Part shown: one piece after another, positions 4,128-48,634 of the stretch
How the letters are laid out: every line of letters begins with the position of its first letter
Position numbering within the stretch: the first letter of the stretch is position 1
NCBI RefSeq assembly: GCF_021952865.1
Contig: NZ_CP040792.1
Location: forward strand, 2,666,001 to 2,730,000
Reading direction: 5' to 3'
From: Clavibacter californiensis
GTDB lineage: Bacteria > Actinomycetota > Actinomycetes > Actinomycetales > Microbacteriaceae
DNA length: 64,000 bases
Made by a program: the position numbers and the translations under genes
Notes under the pieces: generated by a model
What the model saw: only the letters and a program-made list of their open reading frames with translations
Database searches by the model: none
Told to the model about the DNA's origin: nothing

Positions 4128-5789
4128 TCAGATGTGCGGCACGAAGTCGCGCCACGCGACGCGGCGCTCGGCGTGCGGGTCGTGCTCGATGCGGTCGACC
4201 ACGTCGAAGACGAGGGTCGCGCGCTCGCCCGACGCGCCTGCGTCGGCCGCACCGGTGCCCGGGGCCTCGTCGGCGACGCCCACGTAGGGCGGCCAGGACT
4301 CGTCGACGGTGCCGTCCTGCGCGAAGCGGAGCCACGCGATGCGCATCCGCTCCCCCGCCGCGACGAACGCGCGCCGGCCGCCGAGGAGGGTCATGCCGCG
4401 GCCGAGCATCGAGTCCATGCGGTCGAACAGCGCGAACAGCTCGAGGCCGTGCGTGGCGTCGAGGCCCATGAGGTGCACGAGGCGCGGCGCGATGTCGAAG
4501 CGGTAGAAGTGCACGGGCGCGTAGCGGGCATGGCGCTCGGCGACCTTGATGGACGGGAACCAGAAGGCGTAGTCGCCGCCGAAGTCGAGCGCGGCCCGGC
4601 GCTTGGGCAGGCCGGGGTAGAGCGCGGCGAGCTCCTCGCGGTGGGCCTCGTCGGTCTTCGCGAACACCGCGTCGATGCGCGGCGGCGTGGTGGCGAGGAT
4701 GTCGAGGCGGCCGGTGAACAGGGATCCCTCGCGCTCGTTGGTGCCGATGATGAGCGGCACCCGGGCCGCGCGGCCGTGCTTGAACGCGTCGAGCGGGCGC
4801 TCCGGCAGCACGTCGCCGTCGATGACGGGGCTGAACGTGATGGTGCCCGGCTCCTCGTCGGGCGTCCGCACCATCAGCTCGTTCGCCGCGGCGGCGAGGG
4901 TGGACGCGCTCGCGGCCGTGAGCAGCCGGACCGCCTCGGCGTCGTCGGGGGCGCGGCCCGCCCGACCGGCGAGGAGGCCCACGAACTCGGCCGCCCATCG
5001 CGCGGTCTGCTCGGCCGGGTAGACGGCGTTCGTCGGCGAGCTCTGCGCGATGGCGCGGGCGAACAGCCCGTGCGCCGACGGCACCGCCATGAGGGTCGTG
5101 ACGGCGTTGCCGCCGGCGGACTCGCCGAAGACCGTGACGTTGTCGGGATCCCCGCCGAACGCGCGGATGTTGTCGCGCACCCACTGGAGCGCCTGCACCT
5201 GGTCGCGCAAGCCCAGGTTCGACTCGATGGGGCGCTCCGGCGTCGAGTACCGGCTGAAGTCGAGGTAGCCGAGCGCCCCGAGGCGGTAGTTGAAGCTCAC
5301 GTAGACTATGCCGCCCTGACGGACGAGGCCCTCGCCCTGCACGGGGTTCTCGCGCGAGGAACCGACGACGTACGCGCCGCCGTGGATGAAGACCATGACG
5401 GGCCGCAGCTGCGACTCACGGTTCACGCGCGCGGCGTCGGGGCTGAGGCCGGAGGGCGCGATGACGTTGACGGTGAGGCAGTCCTCCCCCATCGGCGTGC
5501 CCTGCGGCGCGCCCATGAAGGCTCCCGCGCTGACCTGCGGCGCGACCTTGCCGAAGTGCTGCGCGAACCGCGCGCCCTCCCAGCCGACGACGGGCTGCGG
5601 CGCCCGGAAGCGGAGGTCGCCGCGGGGCGGTGCGGCGAAGGGGATGCCGCGCCACGCCTCGATCCCCCGCTCGCGCACGCCGCGGACGGTGCCGCCGGTG
5701 ACCCGCACGTCGAGCTCCGACGGGTCGTACGCCGGGGTGGGCACGTCGGCGTCTGGGGTCACCCGATCGAGTTTACGGTCCGCCCTCAC
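4128..5789 (-). CDS. type B carboxylesterase
   Basis: Serine hydrolase of the carboxylesterase/cholinesterase family acting on carboxylic esters; natural substrate unknown. About 553 residues. The N-terminal family block WRGIPFAAPPRGDLRF is followed by EDCLTVNV, the oxyanion region VFIHGGAYVVGS, and the nucleophile elbow VFGESAGGN. A catalytic-histidine block THGLELF is near residue 440. No signal peptide is seen. The GTG start overlaps the stop of the upstream CYTH-CHAD gene (GTGA), which suggests coupled expression; a second GTG at 5760-5762 is an alternative start nine codons in. Confidence 0.9.
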   Translation of the reverse strand: MRADRKLDRVTPDADVPTPAYDPSELDVRVTGGTVRGVRERGIEAWRGIPFAAPPRGDLRFRAPQPVVGWEGARFAQHFGKVAPQVSAGAFMGAPQGTPMGEDCLTVNVIAPSGLSPDAARVNRESQLRPVMVFIHGGAYVVGSSRENPVQGEGLVRQGGIVYVSFNYRLGALGYLDFSRYSTPERPIESNLGLRDQVQALQWVRDNIRAFGGDPDNVTVFGESAGGNAVTTLMAVPSAHGLFARAIAQSSPTNAVYPAEQTARWAAEFVGLLAGRAGRAPDDAEAVRLLTAASASTLAAAANELMVRTPDEEPGTITFSPVIDGDVLPERPLDAFKHGRAARVPLIIGTNEREGSLFTGRLDILATTPPRIDAVFAKTDEAHREELAALYPGLPKRRAALDFGGDYAFWFPSIKVAERHARYAPVHFYRFDIAPRLVHLMGLDATHGLELFALFDRMDSMLGRGMTLLGGRRAFVAAGERMRIAWLRFAQDGTVDESWPPYVGVADEAPGTGAADAGASGERATLVFDVVDRIEHDPHAERRVAWRDFVPHI

Positions 5790-7369
5790 GCTCCCGGGAC
5801 GGGGGTCGCGAGCAGGCGCTCCAGCGCGCGCTCCGCCCGCCAGAGCGCGGACTGGGTGCGCAGCCGCTCGGCCTCGTGCAGCACGCCGAGCGCGAAGGCG
5901 TCCTCACCGCGGGCCGCGAGGCGCTTCGCCTCGTCGCGGAGGACCCGCTGCATCGCGATGCCGTCGCGGTGCTCGCCGAGCTCGTCGTGCACCTCCTCGG
6001 CGGCGGTCGCGAGCCGCATCGTCTTCCGGCCGAGGACCTGGACCGTGCGGCCGCTGACCTCCTCGGCGGCGTAGCGGAGGCGCTTGGCGGCCTTGCGGAC
6101 CTCGTGCAGCGCCTCGGTGCGCGCTGCCTCGCCGACCGCCTCCTGCGCGACCGCTGCCCGGCGGCCGACCCGCTCGGCGTCGCGACGGAGCGCCGCGTGC
6201 AGGGCGGGCCCCGCCGGGGCGCTCGCATCGTGCGTGAGGGGCGGATCCGCGACCAGCCGGTCGAGGTCGTCGAGCAGCGCGAGGTAGCGCGCCGACGAGA
6301 GCGCGCGGACCACGCGCTCGTGGGCGCGGCGGTACCGCTCGTCGAGGACGTCGTGCAGGGCGTCGCCGACGTGGTCGGGCACGGTCTCCGTGTCGTGCTC
6401 CACCACCGACCAGACGACGCGGTCGCGCAGCACCTCCATGTCGCGCGCGCCGCCGAGCACGGTCCCGAGCGCGGTGAGCTCGGCGCGGACGGCCGCCGTG
6501 GCCGCCGGGTCGATCACGTCCTGGTGGGTGCGGAGCGCGCTGCGGAGGCGGCGGACGGCGACGCGCATCCTGTGCACGGCGTCGTGCTCGTCGGCGCGCA
6601 CGTGCGGGTCGGCGGCCACGAGGTCGCGGACGCCGCGGGCGAGGATCGCGCGGGCCACCTCGGACGCGGGGCTCTCCTTGGTGAGGGTCGCGGGATCCGG
6701 CAGGGCGGGACCCGCGGGAGCCTCGCGGCCGAGCGCGTCGGCGCCGAGCGCGCGGGCGAGCTTCGAGGCGCTGTCGGAGGGGCGGGCGCCCGCGTCGACC
6801 ACGTGCCGCTCGATCAGGTCGAGGAGCGCCGCGCGCTGCTTCCGCTTCGCGGGCGCGTCCGGCAGCAGCTCGACCTCCCACTCGTGCCAGGCGCGCACGG
6901 TGCCGCCGCGGACGTCGGATCCGGTGACGCGGTCGTCGGCGAACTCGGCGACCGCGCGCCCGTCGGCGTCGAGCAGCGTGACGGTGGTGCGGACGGTCTC
7001 GAGGCGCGCGAGGGGCGTGAGCTCGCGGCCGCGCACGTGCACGGCCACCTGGTCGAGCACGGGGCCGGGGATCGCGCCGTCGTCGCCGTCGCCGTCCTCG
7101 AGCGGCCAGCCGAGCTCGGTGCGGCCCTCGCCGCCGTCGGCCGGGAGCTTCACGTGCCAGCCCGCGTCGTGGCCTCCCTCGCGGCGGCGGAGGATCATGC
7201 GGCGATCGGCGAGCGCGTGGTCCGCGGTGTCGAGGTAGACGGCCACGAGCGTCACGGGATCCGCGGCTCGCGCCTCGGCGATCCCCTCGATGCCGACGAA
7301 GGCCGGGACCGGCACCCCGTCCGCGACGTCGTACTTGCGCTCGATCTCGACGGAGGATGTGTGCACCAT
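5786..7369 (-). CDS. CYTH and CHAD domain protein
   Basis: A 527-residue cytoplasmic protein. Residues about 1-195 form a CYTH (triphosphate tunnel) domain with the VEIERKYDV signature and the RRREGG strand typical of inorganic triphosphatases. Residues about 270-520 form a CHAD domain, an all-helical polyphosphate-binding module, with the expected His/Arg pairs (HRMRVAVRRLRS and HEVRKAAKRLRY). The combination points to polyphosphate or triphosphate metabolism. The ATG at 7367-7369 was chosen because the CYTH signature begins seven residues later and GGGGG lies upstream. It overlaps the esterase gene and is divergent from the YihY gene, 91 bases apart. Confidence 0.88.
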   Translation of the reverse strand: MVHTSSVEIERKYDVADGVPVPAFVGIEGIAEARAADPVTLVAVYLDTADHALADRRMILRRREGGHDAGWHVKLPADGGEGRTELGWPLEDGDGDDGAIPGPVLDQVAVHVRGRELTPLARLETVRTTVTLLDADGRAVAEFADDRVTGSDVRGGTVRAWHEWEVELLPDAPAKRKQRAALLDLIERHVVDAGARPSDSASKLARALGADALGREAPAGPALPDPATLTKESPASEVARAILARGVRDLVAADPHVRADEHDAVHRMRVAVRRLRSALRTHQDVIDPAATAAVRAELTALGTVLGGARDMEVLRDRVVWSVVEHDTETVPDHVGDALHDVLDERYRRAHERVVRALSSARYLALLDDLDRLVADPPLTHDASAPAGPALHAALRRDAERVGRRAAVAQEAVGEAARTEALHEVRKAAKRLRYAAEEVSGRTVQVLGRKTMRLATAAEEVHDELGEHRDGIAMQRVLRDEAKRLAARGEDAFALGVLHEAERLRTQSALWRAERALERLLATPVPGA

Positions 7370-7460
7370 CCCCCTTGTGTAGCGCACCCGGAGTGGCGCG
7401 GCCAGCCGCTGAGCGCCGTCGCGGCCTCCGGGCGCGCGGGCGTGGGTCAGACTTGCGGGC

Positions 7461-8648
7461 ATGCCCATCCGCCCGCGCCGCGCCGCGCCCGACGACGCCT
7501 CGCCGCAGGCCGAGCTCGACGAGCAGGCGCTGCACCGGCGGCAGCGCATCGGCCGCGAACTCGGCTGGTACGCGTGCCGCCGCGCGGTCTACGGATTCAT
7601 GAAGCACCGCGGCATCGACATGGCCGCGAGCCTGACCTTCTACTCCACGCTCTCGCTCGTCCCCGCGGCGGTCGCGGTGCTCAGCCTCATCGGCGTCGTC
7701 GGCGACACGCGCGCCGGCGTCGAGGGCGTGCTCGGCGTGCTCACGGCGGTGCTGGGCGACTCGGCCGTCGACGTGATCCGCGACCCCGTCGAGCAGCTCG
7801 CCGACGGTCCCCGCTCCGGCATCGCCTTCACGGTGAGCTTCCTCGGCGCGCTCTGGACCTCGGCCGCCTACGTCACCGCCTTCGGCCGCGCGATGAACCG
7901 CGTGCAGGAGACGGAGGAGGGCCGGCCGCTGGTGAAGTACCGGGCGCTGATGCTCGGGGTCACGGTCGCGCTGCTCGTCGTCAGCGTCGTGATGGTCGGC
8001 ATGCTGCTGCTCACCGACGACGGCGCCCGCGCGCTCGGGCAGCAGCTCGGCCTCGGCGACACGACGCTCGTGGTGTGGGCGATCGTCAAGTGGCCGCTGC
8101 TCGCGGCGCTGCTGACGGGGATCATCGGCGTGCTGTACGCGGCGACCCCGAACCTCCGCCGTCGCCGGGTTGACCTGCTCACCTGGGGCAGCCTCGTGGC
8201 GATCGTCGCGTGGGGCCTCGGCACCGCCGGCTTCGTCTGGTACGTGACGACCATCGCGACCTACGAGTCGACCTACGGGGTGCTCGGCGCGGTGATCGTG
8301 CTGCTGCTGTGGCTCTACATCGGGAACCTGTCGCTCGTCCTCGGCGGGGAGCTGGATGTGGAGATCATCCGCGCCCGGCAGCTGCAGGCGGGGATCCCGG
8401 CCGAGCACGCGCTGCGGCTGCCCGTGCGCGACACGACCCGCGCCGACCGCCTCGCCAGGCGCCGGGCCCTCCTCGAGGACGAGGGACGGCGCCTGCGCGA
8501 GGCGCGCTCGGGACGGGAGGCGACGGCCGCCGAGGAGCGCCGGGCGGATGCCCCGCCGACGCTCCCCGAGGACGACACGAGGGAGGTGCGGATCAGGCGG
8601 AGGCGCGGGTCCGCACGACCATCTTCCCGACGTTCTCGCCGCGCATGA
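7461..8648 (+). CDS. YihY/BrkB-family membrane protein
   Basis: A 395-residue integral membrane protein of the YihY/UPF0761 family (historically annotated BrkB or ribonuclease BN). The family motif GIDMAASLTFYSTLSLVPA is at about residues 51-70. About six hydrophobic segments follow, with LTWGSLVAIVAWG and VLGAVIVLLLWLYIGNLSLVLGGEL near residues 240-290. The last 90 residues are a charged cytoplasmic tail rich in Arg and Glu. Its 3' end overlaps the convergent oxidoreductase gene by 56 bases. Function of the family is unsettled. Confidence 0.88.
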   Translation: MPIRPRRAAPDDASPQAELDEQALHRRQRIGRELGWYACRRAVYGFMKHRGIDMAASLTFYSTLSLVPAAVAVLSLIGVVGDTRAGVEGVLGVLTAVLGDSAVDVIRDPVEQLADGPRSGIAFTVSFLGALWTSAAYVTAFGRAMNRVQETEEGRPLVKYRALMLGVTVALLVVSVVMVGMLLLTDDGARALGQQLGLGDTTLVVWAIVKWPLLAALLTGIIGVLYAATPNLRRRRVDLLTWGSLVAIVAWGLGTAGFVWYVTTIATYESTYGVLGAVIVLLLWLYIGNLSLVLGGELDVEIIRARQLQAGIPAEHALRLPVRDTTRADRLARRRALLEDEGRRLREARSGREATAAEERRADAPPTLPEDDTREVRIRRRRGSARPSSRRSRRA

Positions 8649-9612
8649 GGCCGGTGAAGGCCTCGAACGCGCGGTCGATGCCGTCGATCACGGTCTCGTC
8701 GGCGGTGATGCGGCCCTCGGACAGCCACGGGCCCATCTTCGACGCGAACTCGGGCGCGAGGTCCTGGTGGTTGCCGAGGGTGAAGCCGCGGAGCGTGAGG
8801 CCGCGCGTGACGATGCGGCCCGTGTTGCGGATCGCGATCTCCTCGCCGGTGGAGTTGTAGGTCGAGATCGACCCGCAGTTGGCGACGCGGCCGAAGTCCC
8901 TCAGGGCGCCGAGCGCGGCGGAGAGGTGGTCGCCGCCGACGTTGTCGAAGTAGAGGTCGATGCCGTCGGGGGCCGCCTCCGCGAGCTTCTGCTCGAGGTC
9001 GCCGCCGTGGTAGTCGAACGCGGCGTCGAAGCCGAGGTGCGACGTGAGGCGCTCGACCTTCTCCGCGGAGCCGGCGCTGCCGACGACGCGCGAGGCGCCG
9101 AGGAGGCGGGCGATCTGGCCGACCATCGAGCCGACCGCGCCGGCCGCGCCGGACACGAAGACGACGTCGCCCTCCTTGATGGAGGCGATGCGGGTCAGGC
9201 CGACGTACGCGGTGAGGCCCGTGAGGCCGAGCACGCCGAGGTGGGCGGACGACGGCACGCCGGGGACCTCGGGGACGGGGCGGAAGCCGCCGGCCTGGCC
9301 CTGCGCGACGTCGCGCCAGCCGAGCATGTGGCTGACGAGCGTGCCGACCGCGAGGTCTTCGGAGCGGGACTCGACGACGCGGCCGACCGCGGATCCGGTC
9401 ATCGCCTCGTCGAGCTGGAACGGCGGCACGTAGGAGGGCACGTCGTTCATGCGGCCGCGCATGTAGGGGTCGACGGAGATGAACTCGTTCTCGACGCGGA
9501 CCTCGCCGTCCTGCAGGTCGGGCAGGTCGACCTCGACGCGGCGGACGTCGTCGGGGGTGGGCTCGCCGGTGGGGCGCTTCGCCAGCTGCCACTGGATGCT
9601 GCGTGCAGACAT
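8593..9612 (-). CDS. NADP-dependent MDR oxidoreductase
   Basis: Zinc-free medium-chain dehydrogenase/reductase of the leukotriene B4 dehydrogenase / curcumin reductase type, which reduces activated C=C bonds with NADPH. 339 residues. The N-terminal catalytic domain has the FISVDPYMRGRM block; the Rossmann motif GAAGAVGS is at about residues 156-163, followed by the GSAGSAEK segment that reads the NADP phosphate, and the YFDNVGGDHL block at about 230. The start ATG is preceded by GAAGGAGACCC. A single gene, convergent with the YihY gene. Confidence 0.9.
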   Translation of the reverse strand: MSARSIQWQLAKRPTGEPTPDDVRRVEVDLPDLQDGEVRVENEFISVDPYMRGRMNDVPSYVPPFQLDEAMTGSAVGRVVESRSEDLAVGTLVSHMLGWRDVAQGQAGGFRPVPEVPGVPSSAHLGVLGLTGLTAYVGLTRIASIKEGDVVFVSGAAGAVGSMVGQIARLLGASRVVGSAGSAEKVERLTSHLGFDAAFDYHGGDLEQKLAEAAPDGIDLYFDNVGGDHLSAALGALRDFGRVANCGSISTYNSTGEEIAIRNTGRIVTRGLTLRGFTLGNHQDLAPEFASKMGPWLSEGRITADETVIDGIDRAFEAFTGLMRGENVGKMVVRTRASA

Positions 9613-9747
9613 GGGTCTCCTTCGTTCTCGGGGGCGGGCGGTCGGACGGCCGACCCGCGGCGCTCGTGGCGCGGCCCCACCCTTCCACCGCCCGCTGGAT
9701 GCGGCACCCAGCGAGCCGTGGCCTCGTGACGAGGGCCGCGCGGCCGG

Positions 9748-10701
9748 CTACGCGGCGGACGCGCTCACGCGCTCGGCGACGTGCGCGGCGAGCACGTCGC
9801 GCACGCTCGTCCAGGTGTGCGCGCCGAACCGCTCGCGGTCCACGTGCCGCAGCTCCGCCTCGCCGCTGTACATGCTCACGAGGTACTGCATCCCCTGCCA
9901 GGCCGGGAAGGTCTCCTGCTCGTCGCGGCCGACGCGGCGCATCGCCTTGGCCGCCGTGGAGAGGACCCCCGTGCTGCCCGCCCACTGCAGCGCGAACGGC
10001 GTGCCCGTGATCTCCGTCATGGTGCGCGCGAGGTCCCGCGCGGTCACCCGGTCCCCCGCCACCTCGACCACGCGCGGCGCGTGGTCGTCGAGCGCGACGA
10101 GCGCCGTCACGCGGGCGGTGTCGTCCTTGGTCGTGAAGTCGAGCACCTGGTCGGCGGACGACCAGTAGAGGACGCGGCGCCGGTCGAACAGGACGATGGG
10201 CGCCTGCCCGGTGAGCATGTCGGCGAAGGCGCCGTTGAGCACCGAGGTGGCCCGGATCGGCGCGGCGTCGAGGTCGGCCGCGAACTCGCGGCGCAGCTCG
10301 AAGTTGCGGTTGCTGCCGGGCGTGACCCGGCGGTAGTCGGAGGAGTAGTCCGAGGGGATGAAGCGCGGCACGCCGGCCGCGACCGCCGCCGTCAGGAGCG
10401 CACGCTGCGCCCCGACGATCACGGCGCGGGCGCCGCTGACCGCGGAGACGACGACGCGCGCGCCGGCGACCCCGCGGATCAGCGCGGCCCGGTCGGTGTA
10501 CGCGGCCTCGACGACCTCGACGCGCGGGTCGTCGCCCCACGCCTCGGCCGCCGCGGTTCTTCCGGGCCGGGTGAGGACGCGGACGCGCGCGCCGGCCGCG
10601 AGCAGCTCGCGCACGATGCGGCGGCCGAGGTCGCCGGTGGCGCCGGCGACGACGACGGGGCCGGATGCGGATGCGGATGCGGATGCGGGCGATGCGGTCA
10701 T
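9748..10701 (-). CDS. NmrA-like NAD(P)-binding protein
   Basis: Atypical short-chain dehydrogenase fold of the NmrA / isoflavone-reductase-like group. 317 residues. The nucleotide-binding motif VVAGATGDLGRRI starts at about residue 17, then VLTRPGR at strand two and a FIPSDYSSD segment typical of aromatic alcohol reductases. The start at 10701 has a GGAGGAGACC site before it. The first 15 codons encode alternating Ser-Ala from a tandem hexanucleotide repeat and are not part of the fold. Substrate unknown. Confidence 0.82.
   Translation of the reverse strand: MTASPASASASASGPVVVAGATGDLGRRIVRELLAAGARVRVLTRPGRTAAAEAWGDDPRVEVVEAAYTDRAALIRGVAGARVVVSAVSGARAVIVGAQRALLTAAVAAGVPRFIPSDYSSDYRRVTPGSNRNFELRREFAADLDAAPIRATSVLNGAFADMLTGQAPIVLFDRRRVLYWSSADQVLDFTTKDDTARVTALVALDDHAPRVVEVAGDRVTARDLARTMTEITGTPFALQWAGSTGVLSTAAKAMRRVGRDEQETFPAWQGMQYLVSMYSGEAELRHVDRERFGAHTWTSVRDVLAAHVAERVSASAA
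10663..10686. repeat. tandem hexanucleotide repeat, GGATGC x4
   Basis: Four perfect copies of GGATGC inside the first codons of the NmrA-like gene, giving a Ser-Ala run. In-frame unit length means copy-number change would only alter the length of the N-terminal tail. Confidence 0.9.
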
Positions 10702-12754: not shown

Positions 12755-14931
12755 TCAGCTGATGCGCGGCCGCAGCCCCGCGTGGATCGCGAGCGGGTTC
12801 CGCAGCGAGCCGCGGATCTGCATCACCGGCGCCTGCAGGTCGACCATGCGCCGGTTGTCGCGCAGCTGCAGCCGGTTGAGGCAGGAGCGGTCGAAGGACG
12901 GCGCGAAGAGGTCGAACCGGGCGATGCGCTCCGCCAGCTCCGGGTGCGCCCGCTCGTGGTCGGCGAGCGCCTCCGCGGCCACGCGCCACGGGCCGTCGGG
13001 GCCGAGGTCGTCACGGTCCTCGACGAGCGCGGCGGCGAAGCGGAGGAAGCCGTCCATCACGTCGGTGAAGACCGTGAGGGTGCGCTCCTCCTCGGGGACG
13101 TCCATACGGATCCGGCGCACGTCCTCCGGCAGCTCGCGCTCCATGTCGAAGAGGGCGACCTCCTCGGCGATGTCCTTCATCAGCACGCGTACGACGACGT
13201 GGTCGCGGAGCACGAGGATCACGTTCTCGCCGTGCGGCATGAAGGCGAGGTCGTGCGCGATCAGCGCGTGCGCGAGCGGCACGAGGTAGGCGTCGAGCCA
13301 GCGACGGATCCAGGCGGCCGCGCCGATCCCGGACGCGTCGATGAGCGCCTCCAGCACGCTCGCCCCCTGCGCGTCGACGTGCAGCAGGCTCGTCATGCTC
13401 ATCAGCCGCTCGCCCTCCGCGAGGCTCGGCACGGGCGACTCCCGCCAGAGCGCGGACAGCATCTTGCCGTGGGAGTGGCCGGCGGGCAGGGCCGAGTCGA
13501 CGCGGGCGTCGCGCACGCCGACGGACGCGACCTCGCGGAGGATCCCGAAGCCGCGCCGCGCGAACTCCGGGTCGCCCGTGACGAGCGCGTGCACCCAGTC
13601 GTTGATCGCCGGGGTGACCGCCATGTAGGCCGGCGAGAGGCCGCGCGTGAACCCCATGTTGAGGATCGAGAGCGACGTCTTCACGTAGCAGCGCTCCGGG
13701 GTCGTGCGGTTGGCCCAGGTGCGGATCGACTGCTGCGCGCCGTACTCGTCGTCGCCCGTGCCGAGGAGCACGATGTCGCGGGTGGCGACGAGGCCGGCGA
13801 AGGTGACCGTGACGACGTTCTCCCACTGCCACGGGTGCACCGGCACGAGCACGCGCTCGGCCGGGTCGATGCCGAGGTCCGCCATCCGGGCCCGGAACCG
13901 CTCGCGCACGGAGGCGCCGAGCTCGGCGTCGAGGAAGGCCTCGCGGTCGGGGCCGTCGACGGCGGCGAAGCGCGCGAGGCGCTCGTGGACGGCGAGCCAG
14001 AGGATCCGCACGTCCTCCCCCGCCTCGGGCGCGTACCGGTCGTGGTCGTCGAGGTCGAAGCCGATGCGGCCGTTGGTCGCGACGAAGCAGGGGTGGCCCT
14101 CGTCCATCGTCGACTCGACCTCCGCGTACGACGCCGTGAGGAGGCCCTGCGCGTCGGGCACGTCGCGGAGGCGCGAGAAGGCCGCGGCCGAGAGCGTGCT
14201 CTGGATCTCGTCGAGGTAGACGGGCAGCACCTCGTCGGTGATCCCCAGGCGGTCGCGGAGGTCGAGCACGAGGTCGGTCGCGTCGAGCTCGGTGGGCCGG
14301 CCGTCGACCGTGCGGCGGATGCTCGCCTCGTTGACGTCCCAGTGGTCGAGCTCGAGGATCCTGGCCCGGTACGCGTACGCGCTCCGGCCGTCGCCGCTCG
14401 CGACGCGGTAGGCGGCCCAGCGCCTCGGGTCGTGCGGCAGGCGGGGAGCTCCGGATCCACGCGCTCGGGTGCGATGAGCAGCTCGTGCGCGAACTCGGCG
14501 AGCGCCTTGCGCACGAGGTGGCGGGTGGCGGCGGCCCACACGTCGGGACGGAGGTGCGCGGCGCGGTGCACGCGGGGATCCGGCTCGGCGGTCCTCGAGG
14601 CGGCAGCCGGCCGGGCCTCGGGGTGGGTGTCGAGGGGGTGGTCGTGGGTGAGGGTCATGGCATGTCCGTCCATGGGGGTGGCGTGCAGGAGGGCGTCGTT
14701 GCGGGTGGCGACGCTGAGGAGCGCGTGCTTCGCGCCGAGGTCGACGACGCGGAGCGGCCGGAAGCCGACGAGCTCGTTGAGGCGCTGGATCCGGGTGTTG
14801 CGGACGTCCGGCTCGACAACGAGGCGCTCGACGGCCGGGTCCCGGAGGAGGTGCGCGACGACGTGCCGCATGACCGCGCTCGTGAACCCCGGCAGCGGGT
14901 CGCCCGCGGGCGGGCCGACGAGCAGGTGCAT
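12755..14931 (-). pseudogene. GNAT-NIS siderophore synthetase, 5'-truncated and frameshifted
   Basis: Remnant of NRPS-independent siderophore biosynthesis. From 14931 down, the frame encodes the C-terminal half (about 90 residues) of a siderophore acyltransferase: HLLVGPP, GFTSAVMR, VVEPDVRN, RLNELVGF. It reads on without a stop into MTLTHDHPL (ATG at 14658), the start of an IucA/IucC synthetase. Near 14436-14447 the frame breaks after ALAEFAHELLIAPERVDPELPA; the rest (LPHDPRRWAAYRVASG onward, with RTWANRTTPERCYVKTSLSILN and the HPWQWE block) is in another frame and runs intact to 12755. One missing base in a C-rich tract explains this. The acyltransferase N-terminal half is absent; a divergent acidic-protein gene lies there instead. 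Sequencing error remains possible for the frameshift, but not for the truncation. Confidence 0.85.
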
Positions 14932-18939: not shown

Positions 18940-20148
18940 TCAGGCTGGACTATCGGGCAAGGGGGTGGGGCGCCGTCCGCCGACGAGCAGACCCGTTGCC
19001 GCCATGAGGAGGACGACGCACATGACCGCGAGCAGACCGCGGTAAGGGACCACGGTTATCAGCACAGCACCGGCCGCTATCGCCAGTGTTTGCGGGACGG
19101 TCACGGAGGCGTCGAAGGCGGACGCGATCCGGCCTCGGAGCTCGTCGGGCGACCGCCTCTGAACGAGCGTGGTCGCTCCCACGATTAGCCAGGGCAATCC
19201 GAGCCCAAGTAGCGCCGAGCCGACCGATACGGCGCTATCGGCGGGGACAGCCCAGAGCGCGCTGGCAACAGCCATCGCGAGCGCACCTGATGCGGTCGAC
19301 CGCGCCTCGCCGAGCTGACGGAGGAGACGCGGAGCGGTGAGTCCGCCGACCACCGCACCCACCCCCTGGATGGTCACTAGCACCGCCAAATGCTCAGGCG
19401 GCAGCCCAAGCCCCTCGCCAACCACGACGAACATCACGCTCTCGGAGAGACCTAGCACGAGCCAGACCGCCGCCGAGGCGACGACGACCGCGAGGAGAGG
19501 CCTATCCGCGCGTATGTGCGCGAACCCACCCAGAAGGTCGGATGCCCGCGCCCGCTGCCGCTCGTGCCTTGCAGGCACGCGCTCATCTACCTTGATAATT
19601 AGGAGGCTGCCTGCCCCTAGCAGGAATGTCGCCGCGTCGATGACCGCCACCGTCCCTCCCCCGAAGCGGGCGAGCAAGGTCACGCCGATCAGGGGGCCAG
19701 CAAGTCGCAAACCCTGCCGCACCGTCTGCAGCAGTCCGTTCGCGTCCGCTAGGAGCTCGCTGCCGACGACTGCAGGCAACAAGGCGGTCTGCGCCGAGCT
19801 GATGACAACGGCCCCGAGGCCATATAACACCATGACCACGTATACGATCCCCACGTCCTCCGCGGTGGAGACAAACGTGAGCAGCAGCACGGCGGCCGCC
19901 ATAGCGACGTTCGTCGCCACTAGTAAGGTGCGTCGACGAACCCGGTCGACGAGCAGACCCACTGCTGGCGCCAGCAGAGAGGGAGCGGTGACGCAGAAGA
20001 ACACGGCGGCTGCGGCGGCGTCCGAACCCGTCAGCTGACGAACCCAGACCGCGGCAGCAAGGAACATCACGGTGTCGCCGAAGACCGAGACGACCTGCCC
20101 ACCCAGGTAGAGGCATGTGCGTCGGTTCGTGAGCAAGGGTGTGATCAC
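18940..20148 (-). CDS. MFS exporter, EntS-like, next to RiPP-like genes
   Basis: 402-residue major facilitator of the MFS_3 group (EntS / macrolide exporter type). About twelve hydrophobic helices; the N-terminus LYLGGQVVSVFGDTVMFLAAAVWV and the loop VDRVRRRTLL match the group's TM1 and the loop 2-3 signature. The start is a GTG. Base composition drops in this gene compared with the Rieske gene beside it, though it is still richer in GC than the peptide genes. Transcribed divergently from the precursor-like peptide 425 bases away. Proposed role: export of the peptide product or self-protection (inference from position). Confidence 0.85.
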   Translation of the reverse strand: MITPLLTNRRTCLYLGGQVVSVFGDTVMFLAAAVWVRQLTGSDAAAAAVFFCVTAPSLLAPAVGLLVDRVRRRTLLVATNVAMAAAVLLLTFVSTAEDVGIVYVVMVLYGLGAVVISSAQTALLPAVVGSELLADANGLLQTVRQGLRLAGPLIGVTLLARFGGGTVAVIDAATFLLGAGSLLIIKVDERVPARHERQRARASDLLGGFAHIRADRPLLAVVVASAAVWLVLGLSESVMFVVVGEGLGLPPEHLAVLVTIQGVGAVVGGLTAPRLLRQLGEARSTASGALAMAVASALWAVPADSAVSVGSALLGLGLPWLIVGATTLVQRRSPDELRGRIASAFDASVTVPQTLAIAAGAVLITVVPYRGLLAVMCVVLLMAATGLLVGGRRPTPLPDSPA

Positions 20149-20488
20149 CTTCGGCCGCCCGATGCGAGGCAGGGCGCCAAAGCCTGAAGCGCCTCACCCG
20201 AGGCCGCTTTCGAGACAGGAACGGCAGCGCTTTGCACGTGGTAGTCCCGTCTCTCTACCTCGGCTACTCGTACATGCATGTTCGATGCCCTTCATTCTGG
20301 CTGCGCACTCTTCAGATGACAGCCGCCCAGTTCCAGACGGCCTCTAGCCAGACGGGCCGCAGTTACTGGCCTCGAAAGCTGCCGCCGGCGGCTTATGCCG
20401 GCGTGGCGCCGGCTGAGCGCTCAACGACATGGAACGTACACGACAGCACCTATTCCTCGCCAGCTGAAAACTGACATCGTTCGACCTA
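20149..20488. other. intergenic region between divergent exporter and peptide genes
   Basis: No convincing gene. It holds overlapping GC-rich inverted repeats near 20383-20425 (GCCGCCGGCGGC, then GCCGGC copies flanking GTG) that could be operator or attenuator structures. Composition is mixed. Promoters for the exporter (leftward) and the peptide operon (rightward) must lie here or just beyond. Confidence 0.5.
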
Positions 20489-20520
20489 TTGACACGCCGG
20501 AGAACTTGAGGACACTTAAT
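20489..20520 (+). promoter_or_regulatory. promoter of the precursor peptide operon
   Basis: A perfect -35 hexamer TTGACA at 20489-20494. Candidate -10 elements are weak: GACACT at 20511-20516 (16-base spacing) or CTTAAT at 20515-20520. A leader of about 50 bases would then precede the ribosome site. Confidence 0.5.
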
Positions 20521-20573
20521 CGCGAACGACCGCCCGGCCGTTCAGTCGCAATTACTCGAACGGAGAAATAGCA

Positions 20574-20720
20574 ATGCAGACCTACGCCATTTCTGAACTC
20601 GCTAGCGCCATGGACACCACCTCGGCGGCCCCCGCCATGTCTCCGGACACGGCCATCGCATTCGAGGCTTACCGCAGTGAGTACCTCGCGGAGCAGCGCG
20701 TTCTGAAGAAGGACAACTAA
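20574..20720 (+). CDS. RiPP precursor-like peptide (48 residues)
   Basis: ATG at 20574 with GGAGA eight bases upstream, stop TAA at 20718-20720. The peptide has no Cys and no signal peptide. Residues 1-12 (MQTYAISELASA) look like a helical leader; then a Thr/Ser/Ala/Pro stretch (DTTSAAPAMSPDT) and a charged C-terminus with Ser, three Glu, two Lys, Asp and Asn (AYRSEYLAEQRVLKKDN). Hydroxyl or amino and carboxyl side chains close together are what ATP-grasp cross-linking ligases use, so the C-terminal 17 residues, or the TTS region, may be the core. Position directly before the ligase, operon promoter and good ribosome site support a precursor role. The leader lacks the PFAxR motif of TgmA-type graspetides. 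Confidence 0.75.
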   Translation: MQTYAISELASAMDTTSAAPAMSPDTAIAFEAYRSEYLAEQRVLKKDN

Positions 20721-20732
20721 GCACTGTGAGTA

Positions 20733-20768
20733 CGCCCTGGCGGACGGCGCAAGCCGTCCGCCGGGGCG
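20733..20768 (+). terminator. strong hairpin with GCAA tetraloop after the precursor gene
   Basis: Sixteen-base-pair stem (one G-T wobble) closed by a GCAA tetraloop, starting 12 bases after the peptide stop. No T-run. It is well placed to act as a partial terminator or RNA stabiliser so that far more peptide than enzyme is made. It also argues against the GTG at 20726 as start of the ligase. Confidence 0.7.
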
Positions 20769-20791
20769 TCTCGGCGAAGAGAAGTGAGCAT

Positions 20792-21910
20792 ATGGCGTTC
20801 CAGAATTGGTATCTAGAATCACAAGGCCTCGAAATCCCGCTAGGGAAAGCAAATGGCGACTTTTACTCAACGATGCTGTCCCTCTTTGGTGACAGCCTGA
20901 GCGCCCAGCCGCCCGAGCTAATGATATTGACACGACGAAACGATGCCGAGGCGGATCAGCTGTCAATCGCGCTCGGCCGCCGGGGGCACGCCGTCGCCCG
21001 ATGCAACGTTGAGGACCTGAACAACGCTACAACATTGACCATCGGGGTCGGCGAATATGGTGCATCTCCGAGCCTTCGGCTTGGACACGTCGATCGCCCG
21101 CACTACAATCCCCGGCTCGTGTACATACGCCATTTCGATCTCGATGCGCTGGCGCCGGCCATCACGAAAAGATCGCGGGGATGCGAAATTCTCAACAAGT
21201 ATCATCGGCAGCAATGGACGGCCATGACGAACGCTTTGCTTCATAGCGGAGTAGAAATCATTGGCCTCAATGCCGTGCGCGCCAACGACGACAGAATTCG
21301 TCAAATCACGACGGCGCAACACCTGGGATGGGCGACCCCGTCGACCCTCGTCAGTAATAGTACAAAAGACCTTCGAACATTCGCGCTAGCCAGCCCCTCG
21401 GGCATAATTGTGAAAGCATTGGGCTCGCACTTTGTCGAGGAACCGCCACAATTACTGAATGGATACTTTCCGCGCATACTCAGATCTCGCGATGCGATAC
21501 GAGCTATCTTCGACGAGCAAGATCAGGGATTCGAGCCATCACCTGTCTTATGCCAGTGGTTCATCCCGTCGCATTATGAGGTCAGGGTATATGTAGCTGG
21601 CACCGACACCAGGGCATTCCAGATAAAGAAGGCGAGCCACGACAACCTCTGGATCGATCCGGAAGGGACGGCTGCCGAGTTCATAGATATCGGCGATGAG
21701 ACATCGCGCGCACTCGTCCGGCTGTCCCAAGCCCTGGGTATGGACGTAGCGGCGATCGACCTCTTGTATACCGAGCAAGGCTTCGTATTTCTCGAAGCAA
21801 ACGCGAATGGGGACTGGTGTTGGGTCGAATCAACAACAGGCAGCGCAGACGTGACCGCCATGCACGCCAAGTATCTAGAAGGGAAGATCGGTGAGATATC
21901 ACCTCAGTAG
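20792..21910 (+). CDS. ATP-grasp peptide ligase, graspetide-synthetase type
   Basis: 372 residues from the ATG at 20792. It resembles the MvdD/TgmB ligases that join side-chain carboxylates to hydroxyls or amines in a precursor peptide using ATP. Seen: N-terminal pre-ATP-grasp domain with NPRLVYIRHFDLD; INKYHRQQW-type helix (LNKYHRQQWTAM); ATP-binding lysine in GIIVKALG; the VLCQWFIPSHYEVRVYVAG strand with its Glu/Arg; and the Mg-binding end FLEANANGDWCWVE, a variant of the E-x-NPNGQW motif of this family. The overlapping flavoenzyme gene follows. Codon use is more AT-rich than the flanks. Close relatives were not searched, so the exact linkage formed (ester, amide, or aminoacylation) is open. 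Confidence 0.82.
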   Translation: MAFQNWYLESQGLEIPLGKANGDFYSTMLSLFGDSLSAQPPELMILTRRNDAEADQLSIALGRRGHAVARCNVEDLNNATTLTIGVGEYGASPSLRLGHVDRPHYNPRLVYIRHFDLDALAPAITKRSRGCEILNKYHRQQWTAMTNALLHSGVEIIGLNAVRANDDRIRQITTAQHLGWATPSTLVSNSTKDLRTFALASPSGIIVKALGSHFVEEPPQLLNGYFPRILRSRDAIRAIFDEQDQGFEPSPVLCQWFIPSHYEVRVYVAGTDTRAFQIKKASHDNLWIDPEGTAAEFIDIGDETSRALVRLSQALGMDVAAIDLLYTEQGFVFLEANANGDWCWVESTTGSADVTAMHAKYLEGKIGEISPQ

Positions 21911-23000
21911 GGCGGGCGTGATCTTCGTTGACGGTGACCAAATCATCTGGGACGGCTACCTTTCGCATGAGCAATTTGCTTTGAGAACCGAGGCTCTCAA
22001 AATGCTCCTTCAGGCCCGCACATGGGTGACGTGGAGCGAGTTGGTGGCGGCGGAAAATCGGTCAGAGCAGCACGACAGGGAGACGCTGGCACAGAATCTC
22101 ATCGACGAGGGTCTACTCGTGGAGCAAGACTCTCCGCTGGCAATTGCTGAAGCGAATCTGCTCGGGTGGGATGAATGGGGAACCAGCTCGAAGCACTACC
22201 ACTTCTCCAGTCGAATACTCAAGAAGACCATCTTCACACCGCCGTCGGAGGACGTCAACCGCCTCAAGGCGAAGGCGATGATCATGCAACGACCTCCCCT
22301 GGTGAGTAGAGCAGCTAACGAAATCATGTTAGGCACCGGCGGTGACACCAGCCAAGGCAAGATATCCCTGGCGGAAGCGCTGCGCAAACGGCGAACAGAA
22401 CGTAACTTCGACTCTTCGCCCATCGAGCTTCATGCTCTCTCCGAGCTTTTGGACATGAGCGCACGATACACGTCTGTGTCCGAAACCGCCGACGGAGGCG
22501 TGGTCGCGCAGCGAAGCAGTCCCTCCGCAGGGTGCCTGCAGAGCACAGATATCTACGTCATATGCTCCGACGTGACCGGACTTCCAGCGGGGGCTTACGC
22601 CTATCTGCCTGATCGGCATGCCCTCTCTCCCGTGACCGCTACCCCACCGCCCTTAGCAAAGCTGTTACCCGAGCAGACCTACTACCAGCGCGCGTCTGCC
22701 TTCGTCGTATATGTAGGCAACGTTTCGCGCATGCAATGGAAGTATGACGGACCACGAGCTTACCGGGGTCTTTTACTTGATGTCGGCCATCTCAGTCAAA
22801 CCTTTTATTTGTCTTGCACGGCTCTCAATCTTGCTGTCGGCTTCTCGGGTGCCGTGTGCGATGAGGCGATCGAAGAGTACCTGAACTTGAATCCATACGA
22901 GCATCTTGTGTTCGGGATCACAGTCATCGGAAACGAGTCGCCAGGCGGAGCGATGGCGACTCGTCAATCGCTGATCGGATCACGGAAACCACCGGAATGA
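21891..23000 (+). CDS. SagB-type flavin-dependent dehydrogenase
   Basis: 369 residues, GTG start 20 bases inside the ligase gene. Residues about 1-90 look like a winged-helix, PqqD/RRE-like peptide-binding domain (YHLSRAGVIFVDGDQIIWDG, LIDEGLLVEQDS). Residues about 150-360 form a nitroreductase-fold SagB/ThcOx domain: LAEALRKRRTERNFD, the SPSAGCLQSTDIYVIC FMN-binding block, and YRGLLLDVGHLSQTFYLSCTALNL. Such enzymes oxidise azolines to azoles in thiazole/oxazole RiPPs, but no YcaO cyclodehydratase and no Cys-rich precursor is present here. It may oxidise a residue or backbone position in the peptide linked by the ATP-grasp enzyme. Stop is followed by 250 bases without a gene. Confidence 0.85.
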   Translation: MRYHLSRAGVIFVDGDQIIWDGYLSHEQFALRTEALKMLLQARTWVTWSELVAAENRSEQHDRETLAQNLIDEGLLVEQDSPLAIAEANLLGWDEWGTSSKHYHFSSRILKKTIFTPPSEDVNRLKAKAMIMQRPPLVSRAANEIMLGTGGDTSQGKISLAEALRKRRTERNFDSSPIELHALSELLDMSARYTSVSETADGGVVAQRSSPSAGCLQSTDIYVICSDVTGLPAGAYAYLPDRHALSPVTATPPPLAKLLPEQTYYQRASAFVVYVGNVSRMQWKYDGPRAYRGLLLDVGHLSQTFYLSCTALNLAVGFSGAVCDEAIEEYLNLNPYEHLVFGITVIGNESPGGAMATRQSLIGSRKPPE

Positions 23001-23252: not shown

Positions 23253-24449
23253 TTATTCCCGACGCGTCAAGTGGCGCAGCGCCACCACCGCGAGCACCGC
23301 GCATCCCGCGAACACGATCGCACCCGCGACGGTCGGCAGCGCGATGCCCGAGGTCGCGAGCATGCCGCCCAGCGCGGATCCGGCGGCGAGGCCGAGCAGG
23401 CTGACCACCCGGCCCGCAGCGCCCACGCGCCCCAGGAGGTCCGCCGGGACGAGCCGCTGCCGGAGCGTGGTCGCGCAGATGCTCCAGACCACCGCGTGCA
23501 GGATGTAGAGCGCGAGCAGGATCCCCGCGACGATCGGCTCCCGCGCCACGGCGAGGCCCGCGAGGCTGGCCGCGCCGAGCGCCAGGGCCCCGGTGATGGT
23601 CCACCGGGAGCCGAGGCGGGCCCGCAGCGGCGCGGCGATCGCGGATCCGGCCAGGCCGCCGAGCGCGCTGGCCGCGAGGAGCACGCCGTAGCCGGCGGCG
23701 TCGAGTCCGAGCCGCTCGCCCGCGAAGAGCACGAGGACCGAGAACGGCAGCATGTAGCCGACGCTCGCGAGGCCGCCGATGAGGGCGAGGGATCCGACCA
23801 CGCGGTGCCGGGCGAGCCAGCGCACGCCCTCCGCGGCCTCGCGGAAGACGGAGGGGCGCGGGCTCGAAGCGGAAGACGCCGGATCCACCCGCCGCGGCAG
23901 CGCGAGCGCCACCGCACCCGCCGCCACCCACAGCCCGCCCGTGGCGTACACGGGAACCGCGGCGGCGAGCGCGAACAGGATCCCGCCGAGCGGCGGCCCC
24001 ACGAACTCGTCCGCCACGAGCTGCGTGCCGGTGATGCGCGCGTTCGCCCGGTCGAGCCGGTCACCCGGCACGATCGACGGCAGCACGGCGACCGCGGCCC
24101 CGTCGGCGGCGCTCTCGAGCACGCCCACCACGGCCATCACCGCGTAGAGCACCGCGAGCGACGCGACGCCCGACTGGATCGACACCGCGAGCCCCAGCAC
24201 CGCGACACCCCGCAACAGGTTCGCGACGACGATCAGCGTGCGCCGGTCGAGCCGGTCGACGTACACGCCCACGGGCAGCGCGACCAGCAGCCGCATGAGC
24301 GCGTACGTGGTCGCGAGCCCGGCGACGCCGCGCGGGTCGTCGGTGAGGCCCGCCGCGACGAGCGGCAAGGTGACGAAGACGAGCCCGTCCGCGAGGTTGG
24401 AGAGCGCGCTCGCGACCCACAGCGCCCGGAACGGGCTCGTGGATCTCAC
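23253..24449 (-). CDS. MFS exporter, EntS-like
   Basis: 398-residue major facilitator of the same broad group as the exporter at 18.9-20.1 kb. TM1 reads FRALWVASALSNLADGLVFVTLPLVAAGL; the loop signature is YVDRLDRRTLIV. The GTG at 24449 was preferred because GGGGAG lies before it and the longer frame is Pro/Arg-rich noise. Base composition is that of the core genome, so it marks the right edge of the AT-richer peptide island. Substrate unknown. Ends 49 bases upstream of nothing related; the flotillin gene lies on its 5' side. Confidence 0.88.
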   Translation of the reverse strand: MRSTSPFRALWVASALSNLADGLVFVTLPLVAAGLTDDPRGVAGLATTYALMRLLVALPVGVYVDRLDRRTLIVVANLLRGVAVLGLAVSIQSGVASLAVLYAVMAVVGVLESAADGAAVAVLPSIVPGDRLDRANARITGTQLVADEFVGPPLGGILFALAAAVPVYATGGLWVAAGAVALALPRRVDPASSASSPRPSVFREAAEGVRWLARHRVVGSLALIGGLASVGYMLPFSVLVLFAGERLGLDAAGYGVLLAASALGGLAGSAIAAPLRARLGSRWTITGALALGAASLAGLAVAREPIVAGILLALYILHAVVWSICATTLRQRLVPADLLGRVGAAGRVVSLLGLAAGSALGGMLATSGIALPTVAGAIVFAGCAVLAVVALRHLTRRE

Positions 24450-47831: not shown

Positions 47832-48062
47832 TCAACTCCTTGTTCACTGCCGGAGCCAGGCGCTGCCTGCGCTCCCGGATCGGAAGGACGTGCGTCCGTC
47901 GCGCACGGTGACGCGTGCGGTCGGACGGTGGCGAGGGGACCTGCCTCGAGCAACCGGGGTTCCGGGTCGGGGGTGGGACGTGGGTCCGCCGCCTGCGCCC
48001 GGCCGCCTCGGGGAGGACGGGCACACGGAGAGTTTAGGGCACGCGCGAGGCGGTGCGCGCCG

Positions 48063-48317
48063 GTGTGCGCGGGGTGGCCCGGCCACGAGGACGACGGTGA
48101 GCACCGGTTCACCGAGGACGGGACACCTCGAAGGACGGAGCCCTTCGAGTGGTCGCCAGCGCCCGAACCGACGGTCCCTGCCCCGCGCGTGGTGGACGCG
48201 CCAGGCCGCCGCAATCAACCTCTTCCGCTCCGGTACCAGATCCCCGAGACCGAAGAGCATGCGATCCCCGAGAAGTACCGGACGCACCAGGTCGTTAAAG
48301 ACCTCTTGGCGCGGTGA
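48063..48317 (+). CDS. possible small protein, perhaps a gene fragment
   Basis: An 84-codon GTG-started frame. The last 45 codons read like protein (RNQPLPLRYQIPETEEHAIPEKYRTHQVVKDLLAR) while the first part is low-complexity. It could be the 3' remnant of a lost gene. Its stop overlaps a GTG that opens another short frame. No clear ribosome site. Confidence 0.35.
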   Translation: MCAGWPGHEDDGEHRFTEDGTPRRTEPFEWSPAPEPTVPAPRVVDAPGRRNQPLPLRYQIPETEEHAIPEKYRTHQVVKDLLAR

Positions 48318-48466
48318 CACGGCTCCACGAGTCCGACGAGCTCCGCAGGCACGCCGCCGAGCGACGGGACCGCGAGCTCGAGGAGAGCGGCCGGCAGTCA
48401 CGGAGCGGGAGCAGGAGATGGGCACGCACGAGCGCCGCGGCCCCCACCTCTAAGTGGGCCTCTTGA
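48314..48466 (+). CDS. possible short ORF coupled to the previous one
   Basis: 50 codons, GTGA overlap with the preceding frame. First half is a charged helix (LHESDELRRHAAERRDRELEES); beyond that an alternative frame gives a better continuation (VTEREQEMGTHERRGPHL), so a further one-base shift is possible. Weak support. Confidence 0.25.
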   Translation: MTRLHESDELRRHAAERRDRELEESGRQSRSGSRRWARTSAAAPTSKWAS

Positions 48467-48634
48467 CTCGGCTGCTCGACAACTCCACGCGTGTCGTCAG
48501 ACAGATGTCCCCGTTCGAGGGGATGCGGTCGCATTTCTGACGTGAGACTCTGTTGCACAGAGGTATGCCCGTCATGGCTTCGAATTCATGCGCCATTCTG
48601 ATCGCGATCAGCAGATTCGCCAACATGGAGCCAG
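48467..48634. other. gene-free junction before the AT-richer protease patch
   Basis: No gene. Composition drops from very GC-rich to mixed here. The motif CTCTGTTGCACAGAGG near 48548-48563 is a short inverted repeat that recalls the ends of some insertion sequences, but no transposase or second end was seen. The GC-poor protease gene starts right after. Confidence 0.4.

What the first reader, a model, noticed from the sequence alone, without database searches (positions are those of the whole stretch)
18940..23000. RiPP-like cluster pairing a graspetide-type ATP-grasp ligase with a SagB-type dehydrogenase
Seen: a short peptide gene, an ATP-grasp ligase with the E-x-N-x-NG-x-W signature, and a SagB/ThcOx flavoenzyme with an RRE-like N-terminus, the last two overlapping, with a divergent MFS exporter. 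Known: SagB enzymes normally act after a YcaO cyclodehydratase on Cys/Ser/Thr, and graspetide ligases usually act alone or with methyl- or acetyltransferases. Here YcaO is absent and the peptide has no Cys. Inference: the product may be a cross-linked peptide that is then oxidised, a combination I do not recognise.
Basis: partly seen in the sequence, partly recalled or inferred. Interest (0 to 1): 0.9.

Follow-up and report, generated by a model that had tools for sequence, protein, structure and literature searches.

The report
Peptide cluster: ATP-grasp plus SagB oxidase
A bacterium has picked up a small gene cluster that probably makes a short peptide, links side chains in its tail with one enzyme and oxidises it with another; this enzyme pairing has been noted in print before, but its chemistry is unknown.

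Summary
Window 20574-23000 encodes a 48-aa peptide, an ATP-grasp ligase and a SagB-family dehydrogenase, with a divergent MFS gene. It is a low-GC island: 10 of 16 congeneric relatives have an empty site. The pair, preceded by a short ORF, recurs in four other lineages: three Actinomycetota genomes and a Ligilactobacillus salivarius plasmid. Leave-one-out profiles put the window, G223 and G314 peptides at rank 1 among 5047 small ORFs; the other two are supported only weakly. Four of five peptides end KKD[N/S/A]. A hairpin separates peptide from ligase in six loci. The ligases fall in a supported group (100/99) with R[H/Y]F and DW where most others have RR and [Q/E]W/Y/F. No YcaO was found in the cluster; the genome's single YcaO lies elsewhere with its own SagB. 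The pairing is not new: a 2022 graspetide survey reported it. I found no chemical characterisation. Most likely the ligase joins the conserved tail lysine to a carboxylate and SagB then oxidises the core; the oxidised bond is unknown. The claimed RRE was not confirmed. New variant of a known kind.

The parts
20574..20720 (+). precursor peptide gene, 48 aa, MQTYAISELASAMDTTSAAPAMSPDTAIAFEAYRSEYLAEQRVLKKDN
   Evidence: ORF with SD-like GGAGA at 20562-20566; rank 1 among 5047 small ORFs with a profile of the other candidate precursors, E 8.8e-8
20732..20769 (+). RNA hairpin between precursor and ligase genes (17-bp stem, 4-nt loop), probably an attenuator that keeps precursor above enzyme
   Evidence: fold of 20721-20791: -46.7 kcal/mol, z -6.5, 0 of 200 shuffles as good; stable folds in the same place in the five other loci folded, the weakest L. 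salivarius (z -2.3, 5 of 200 shuffles as good); attenuator role inferred
20792..21910 (+). ATP-grasp peptide ligase, 372 aa from the likely ATG (394 aa from the GTG at 20726)
   Evidence: TIGR04187 E 3.8e-28, 98.6 bits, below its cut-off of 350; profile A4 of four paired ligases matches CdnC E 3.5e-44 and AMdnB E 6.6e-40; in a 12-row group with support 100/99; start by alignment
21891..23000 (+). SagB-family flavin dehydrogenase, 369 aa, with an N-terminal domain of about 95 aa; conserved W-K-Y
   Evidence: TIGR03605 over cut-off, TIGR04511 E 6e-42 below cut-off; WKY aligned with CyaGox
18940..20148 (-). divergent MFS transporter, possible exporter or self-protection
   Evidence: PF07690 E 1.7e-28, TIGR00900 E 5.6e-41 below cut-off; an MFS-type gene also follows the pair in L044
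18932..23273 (.). horizontally acquired island between conserved flanks
   Evidence: 10 of 16 same-genus relatives with the full left flank join 18931 to 23274-23288 with 28-48 bp between; GC 0.55-0.67 in its genes against 0.70-0.76 in three flanking genes

Best explanation
A compact RiPP operon. The 48-aa peptide is made in excess, with a hairpin limiting read-through into the enzyme genes. Its middle part (F[E/D]x[Y/F]xxEY in the window, G223 and G314) serves as leader and recognition motif, and roughly the last eleven residues (LAEQRVLKKDN) are the core. The ATP-grasp enzyme phosphorylates an Asp or Glu carboxylate of the core and the epsilon-amine of the conserved tail Lys attacks it, closing a macrolactam (-18 Da). 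The SagB flavoenzyme then removes two hydrogens (-2 Da) from the constrained core, not from an azoline. The leader is cut off by an unlinked protease and the MFS protein exports the product or protects the producer. Shown: genes, homology, recurrence of pair and short ORF, hairpin, acquisition as an island. Inferred: cross-link, order of steps, site of oxidation, attenuator role, export, biological role (perhaps antagonism).
For: The ATP-grasp profile matches solved graspetide ligases (CdnC 3.5e-44, AMdnB 6.6e-40) and the paired ligases keep D345, E357, N359 and the E-x-R motif. A Lys near the C-terminus is present in all five paired precursors and KKD[N/S/A] ends four of them. The window, G223 and G314 precursors are each recovered at rank 1. 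Ligase and SagB genes overlap in the window (20 bp), L. salivarius (8 bp) and G223 (4 bp). SagB keeps WKY (WRY in G848; the stretch is lost in the truncated G314). Stable fold between peptide and ligase in all six loci folded, five of them paired. MFS gene beside the pair in the window and G223.
Against: The acidic partner is not at a constant distance from the Lys (by eye 4 to 8 residues before it). The ligase group differs from most other ligases compared at two positions, so its chemistry may differ. Only 5 of the 12 ligases of that group have SagB beside them; G544 and six f105 ligases do not, so SagB is not part of the group's common chemistry. One paired precursor (G848) ends CKGCHGG, with Cys and no KKD, and its SagB has R for the conserved K. 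In leave-one-out tests G848 ranks 6 at E 16, L. salivarius 226, and G544 is not found. No leader peptidase seen in the cluster. The same SagB subfamily occurs without ATP-grasp. An MFS homologue occupies the same site in three relatives without ligase or SagB, so the MFS gene may not belong to the pathway.
Confidence: 0.48

Rival explanations
1. The ATP-grasp enzyme does not cross-link; it joins an amino acid or another peptide end to the precursor (as PGM1 does in pheganomycin, or as LysX-type ligases do on LysW; the latter recalled), and SagB oxidises the added unit on the carrier peptide.
For: In the same ligase group G544 sits beside genes that I read as a PGM1-like ligase and an amidinotransferase (names by eye, no family scan), much as PMC8939145 describes for branch 6 in Streptomyces viridosporus. 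The group has R[H/Y]F and DW. A nearly constant short C-terminus is what a carrier tail would look like.
Against: Profile scores are far better for graspetide ligases than for RimK/LysX enzymes (3.5e-44 against 5e-7 to 2e-4). I saw no gene supplying an unusual amino acid in the window cluster.
Confidence: 0.2
2. The ligase activates the Asp of KKD[N/S/A] and the next backbone NH closes an aspartimide; SagB then desaturates the succinimide to a maleimide-type ring.
For: Asp followed by a small residue (N, S or A) in four of five paired precursors, a sequence prone to succinimide formation (established peptide chemistry). RiPPs with aspartimides exist, made with methyltransferases (abstract of PMC13001092, seen in the listing).
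Against: G848 has no Asp in its last residues. I recall no ATP-grasp enzyme that makes an aspartimide directly.
Confidence: 0.1
3. Ligase and SagB act on different parts of the peptide independently: SagB is a peptide desaturase (dehydro-amino acid), and the ATP-grasp enzyme adds a separate lactam or ester.
For: SagBs of this subfamily occur without ATP-grasp beside other partners, e.g. a repeat peptide ORF in L102 and radical SAM plus methyltransferase in L033; ligases of the group occur without SagB. The SagB tree does not unite the paired SagBs.
Against: Overlapping ligase and SagB genes in three paired loci suggest coupled action.
Confidence: 0.15
4. The YcaO of the separate azole cluster acts in trans and SagB is an ordinary azoline dehydrogenase.
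For: One YcaO exists in the genome. PMC8939145 reports branch 6 ATP-grasps associated with YcaO and TfuA in other, more complex loci.
Against: That YcaO lies beside its own leader-binding protein, SagB and ABC ATPase, about 2.5 Mb away along the contig (about 0.7 Mb if the 3.17-Mb contig is a circle); the last 12 residues of the window peptide have no Cys, Ser or Thr.
Confidence: 0.02
5. The cluster is a non-functional remnant.
For: A decayed copy exists in G282, precursor start fused to the SagB C-half; an L. salivarius plasmid has a truncated SagB next to an integrase.
Against: The window ORFs are intact and keep their motifs.
Confidence: 0.05

Closest known systems
Graspetide branch 6 with SagB-like nitroreductase (precursor clusters 367 and 1115; PMC8939145, Biol Direct 2022)
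   Same: ATP-grasp ligase, short precursor without GG or Phhx(1,2)h motif, SagB-like dehydrogenase
   Different: Precursor letters and tree are in figures not held, so identity with this cluster is not proved; hairpin, KKD tail, island and ligase signatures are not in the parts I read (section 6 parts 1 and 2, and passages)
Microviridin-type graspetides (MdnB/MdnC, CdnC)
   Same: Homologous ATP-grasp enzyme over nearly full length, small precursor just upstream
   Different: RHF and NGDW in place of the RR and NxxGEW-type stretches of the solved enzymes; no PFFARFL-like leader seen (motif recalled); SagB present
Corallotide and rosaritide (PMC13097080, 2026)
   Same: Graspetides with an extra protein; in corallotide a Lys isopeptide is formed and then oxidised
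   Different: Oxidation there is delta-hydroxylation by a 2OG-Fe(II) enzyme; SagB and nitroreductase do not occur in the main text, which mentions dehydrogenases and oxidoreductases only in passing
Linear azole peptides (streptolysin S, microcin B17)
   Same: SagB-family dehydrogenase
   Different: No YcaO in the cluster; the last 12 residues of the precursor lack Cys, Ser and Thr
Pheganomycin-type clusters
   Same: G544, in the same ligase group, has genes read by eye as PGM1-like and amidinotransferase-like
   Different: Neither was seen in the window cluster

Membership tests
Graspetide (omega-ester/amide peptide) | ATP-grasp ligase homologous to MdnB/MdnC | tested here: met
   profile A4 vs CdnC E 3.5e-44, AMdnB E 6.6e-40
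Graspetide (omega-ester/amide peptide) | precursor gene next to the ligase, conserved across loci | tested here: met
   short ORF upstream in 5 of 5 paired loci; in leave-one-out the window, G223 and G314 rank 1, G848 rank 6 (E 16), L. salivarius 226; the unpaired G544 is not found
Graspetide (omega-ester/amide peptide) | ligase stretches RR and G[Q/E] usual in the other ligases compared | tested here: not met
   R[H/Y]F and DW in 12 of 12 rows of the group; RR in 26 of 32 other rows and D at that place in 0 of 32; that these define the family is my reading
Graspetide (omega-ester/amide peptide) | leader motif Phhx(1,2)h or GG cleavage site | tested here: not met
   none seen by inspection of the window peptide; branch 6 precursors also lack them
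Graspetide (omega-ester/amide peptide) | side-chain ester or amide cross-link in the product | not testable with these tools
   needs mass spectrometry
Linear azol(in)e peptide | YcaO cyclodehydratase in the cluster | tested here: not met
   only YcaO match in the genome at C1:198836-199813, window cluster at about C1:2.687 Mb
Linear azol(in)e peptide | SagB-family dehydrogenase | tested here: met
   TIGR03605 118.8 bits against cut-off 78.4
Linear azol(in)e peptide | core rich in Cys/Ser/Thr | tested here: not met
   no Cys; last Ser is S35, none in the last 12 residues
TIGR04511 SagB_rel_DH_2 | score over curated cut-off 240 bits | tested here: not met
   144 bits, E 6e-42
RRE-containing enzyme | PqqD-like N-terminal domain | tested here: inconclusive
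   no PqqD hit, no PDB hit, one weak ThcOx hit in 1 of 10; fold prediction unavailable
Branch 6 of PMC8939145 | ATP-grasp with SagB-like enzyme and precursor lacking GG and Phh motifs | tested here: met
   features met
Branch 6 of PMC8939145 | place in that paper's ATP-grasp tree | not testable with these tools
   its sequences and tree are not held

The most novel reading that the evidence does not exclude
The R[H/Y]F/DW ligase group, where paired with SagB, makes a new RiPP linkage: the ligase activates a carboxylate next to the conserved tail Lys in a way unlike known graspetides, and SagB oxidises that new ring (a dehydrogenated Lys-Asp/Glu lactam or a maleimide). It would be a SagB chemistry independent of YcaO and azolines, spread by horizontal transfer among Actinomycetota and Bacillota.
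Probability: 0.3. Interest if true: 0.82.

Novelty: new variant of a known kind. Interest (0 to 1): 0.62.

Why it matters
SagB enzymes are known as azoline oxidases working after YcaO (recalled, and as PMC8939145 puts it). A recurring three-gene operon in which SagB serves an ATP-grasp-made product would extend both families and give a minimal system (one peptide, two enzymes) for new peptide chemistry. The aligned precursors and the ligase signatures make it directly testable.

Tried and rejected
Close relatives by back-translated patterns in genome contigs: nothing for SagB or the two-ligase alignment. Viral contigs gave one ATP-grasp locus, no SagB; phage records two ATP-grasp matches, one of them fetched, no SagB. 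Six of the 61 plasmid records with a SagB match and five of the 26 with an ATP-grasp match were opened: of these 11 only L. salivarius had the pair; a further SagB record opened later had only a truncated SagB. Seven actinobacterial SagB loci widened to 12 kb (one to the contig end) had no ATP-grasp at E 1e-5. In the class of G223 (39 genomes) the only ligase match besides G223 and G314 was a weak one in G420 (E 1.4e-16), outside the group in the tree. The SagB tree is too weakly resolved to test co-evolution (root fork 44/74, L. salivarius on a long branch) and does not unite the paired SagBs. RRE not confirmed. YcaO in trans judged unlikely. A pattern search for the precursor motif in eight loci of the ligase group found none, but it looked only at ORFs of up to 140 aa and so also missed the G544 candidate, which lies inside a longer ORF. 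A paper search for the McbC Lys-Tyr pair found none, so its catalytic role is recalled.
Full report
What is there. Window 20574-20720 encodes a 48-residue peptide, 20726-21910 (probably from 20792) an ATP-grasp enzyme, 21891-23000 a SagB-family dehydrogenase, and 18940-20148 on the other strand an MFS transporter. The ligase's best curated model is TIGR04187 (E 3.8e-28, 98.6 bits against a cut-off of 350); the dehydrogenase passes TIGR03605 and matches TIGR04511 below its cut-off. An alignment of four paired ligases finds the solved graspetide ligases CdnC (3.5e-44) and AMdnB (6.6e-40) and only weakly RimK/LysX enzymes (5e-7 to 2e-4). The dehydrogenase profile finds best a putative nitroreductase (3eo7, 3.5e-45), then CyaGox (about 2e-29), and further down McbC (1e-11) and BmdC (3e-11).

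Acquired island. The genes have GC 0.55-0.67 against 0.70-0.76 in three flanking genes. The left flank was found full-length in 16 of 17 same-genus relatives. In 10 of these 16, window position 18931 is joined to 23274-23288 with 28-48 bp between. Three (G004, G003, G017) carry there an MFS homologue 55-57% identical to the window's, and G004 also an ArsR-like regulator (by eye), with no ligase or SagB match. Two have other insertions (G015 about 1.0 kb; G016 about 2.6 kb), and in G012 the match resumes only at 24488. So the site exchanges genes, and the MFS gene may not be tied to the pathway. A search with the ligase found no match in the 17 same-genus relatives. The first 20 kb of the genome's second contig match plasmids of which 26 of 44 are from Clavibacter, so the genus is probably Clavibacter; the species is not known.

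Recurrence. The pair ligase-SagB, preceded by a short ORF, was found in five lineages: the window; G223 (L044) and G314 (L045, SagB cut by the contig end) from another class of the same phylum; G848 (L082); and Ligilactobacillus salivarius pLS_3 (L028; ligase and SagB identical in three plasmid records). Of 396 phylum genomes searched with the window SagB at E 1e-20, five besides the own one matched: two have the pair, one (G282) a decayed copy, two no ATP-grasp in the stretch taken. Of 394 class genomes searched with the SagB alignment at E 1e-30, 14 besides the own one matched, and only G848 has the ligase within the fetched locus (about 1.5 kb each side); seven of the other 13 were widened and still had none. 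The ligase alignment matched 80 of the same 394 genomes at E 1e-18, the own one included; of the 29 non-own loci handed out, only G848's holds SagB. Of 61 plasmid records with a SagB match six were opened, one with the pair. The pair is rare and scattered in what I searched; Bacillota chromosomes could not be scanned.

The precursor. The peptides end: window FEAYRSEYLAEQRVLKKDN; G223 FEEYIDEYESADYVLKKDN; G314 FDDYVSEYHAREYVINKKDS; L. salivarius FEEEYKERTHNFINKKDA; G848 FEAFASAYAGDQVYYCKGCHGG. They were picked by position and tail before testing. In a leave-one-out test on 5047 small ORFs (duplicates among overlapping loci included) the window, G223 and G314 peptides each rank first (E 8.8e-8, 2.7e-10, 8.3e-11); G848 ranks 6 (E 16), L. 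salivarius 226, and the candidate from G544 (no SagB) is not found. The first three thus form a family by statistics; the others rest on position and on the motif seen by eye. The stretch between peptide and ligase folds stably in all six loci given to (five paired, plus G544): z -6.5 (window), -2.3 (L. salivarius), -2.9 (G223), -4.1 (G314), -3.0 (G848, only the first 110 nt of its longer gap), -4.2 (G544). Shuffles folding as well: 0, 5, 1, 0, 2 and 0 of 200. This is as expected if the precursor is made in excess.

The enzymes. In a tree of 44 ligases the five paired ones, G544 and six from family f105 are split from the other 32 with support 100/99 (the root is drawn at the midpoint). The seven others of this group have no SagB in their loci, so pairing with SagB is a trait of some of its members. 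All 12 read R[H/Y]F where 26 of the 32 others read RR, and all 12 have D where the others have mostly Q or E (0 of 32 have D). This suggests a changed substrate site, but no structure could be predicted. SagB keeps W-K-Y in the window, L. salivarius and G223 (WRY in G848; stretch missing in the truncated G314), aligned with CyaGox. That the Lys-Tyr pair matters for azoline oxidation is recalled from McbC work. SagBs of this subfamily also occur without ATP-grasp, beside YcaO- and TfuA-like genes (L032, by eye), annotated radical SAM and methyltransferase (L033), or a repeat peptide ORF (L102), so the subfamily is not tied to azolines.

YcaO. The genome has one match to the YcaO family. Around it lie a leader-binding protein (TIGR03882, over cut-off), the SagD-type YcaO (TIGR03604, 186.9 bits, below its cut-off of 219), a SagB (TIGR03605, over cut-off) and an ABC ATPase. 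I did not look for its precursor. It is about 2.5 Mb from the window cluster along the contig, about 0.7 Mb the other way if the contig is a circle; I found nothing linking the two. Against this, PMC8939145 reports YcaO and TfuA with other, more complex branch 6 loci.

Mechanism. I favour cross-linking by the ligase through the conserved tail Lys, then oxidation by SagB (0.48). Rivals are ligation of another unit, aspartimide formation with desaturation, independent action, YcaO in trans, and a dead cluster. By eye Lys is the one tail residue common to all five paired precursors; the acidic partner varies in distance. Corallotide (PMC13097080) sets the nearest precedent: a Lys isopeptide that is later oxidised, though by another enzyme family. 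Re-checking the calls changed several wordings and counts but none of the odds.

Prior knowledge. PMC8939145 (passages; section 6 parts 1-2 of 3) states that most loci with precursor clusters 367 and 1115 in ATP-grasp branch 6 also code for a nitroreductase most similar to SagB. PMC13097080 (outline and abstract, passages, section 7) surveys more than 20,000 predicted graspetides; its main text names neither SagB nor nitroreductase, but mentions dehydrogenases among rarer neighbours, shown in a supplement that I could not see. Searches of the held library listed no chemical study of the pair; most subscription papers are not in it. Other papers were seen only as passages: PMC12710340, PMC9484694, PMC10880893, PMC11521342, PMC12291112. 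Hence: known as a gene pairing, unknown as chemistry as far as I could search; new variant of a known kind.

Noticed in passing
L004:6735-10878 (own genome C1, about 0.197-0.201 Mb): Azole-peptide type enzyme set (leader-binding protein, SagD-type YcaO, SagB, ABC ATPase) in the same genome, far from the window; its precursor was not looked for.
   Followed up: partly
L102:3846-4169 with SagB at 5234-6349: Three-repeat peptide ORF (repeats beginning VFEVHQDDY or VFETHEDAY) upstream of a SagB of the same subfamily; no ATP-grasp by profile and no YcaO by one YcaO query in the 12 kb: possibly another azoline-independent SagB system.
   Followed up: partly
L083 (G544), 6020-10669: Ligase of the same group beside genes read by eye as PGM1-like and amidinotransferase-like, and a 25-aa stretch with a similar FEDFMRQY motif inside a longer ORF: pheganomycin-like cluster without SagB.
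   Followed up: partly
L046:6053-6733: Decayed copy in G282: start of the precursor fused in frame to the SagB C-terminal half; genes read by eye as sigma factor, ArsR-like regulator and MFS are kept.
   Followed up: partly
L145:4001-4910 (L. salivarius pCTN1046): SagB truncated next to a tyrosine integrase; a leaderless bacteriocin gene is annotated about 0.6 kb downstream of it.
   Followed up: no
window 48001-50000: Second low-GC stretch (0.60) with a probable secreted serine protease ORF at 48635-49924 (by eye).
   Followed up: no
window 12755-14539 (-): ORF resembling an IucA/IucC-type siderophore synthetase by eye.
   Followed up: no
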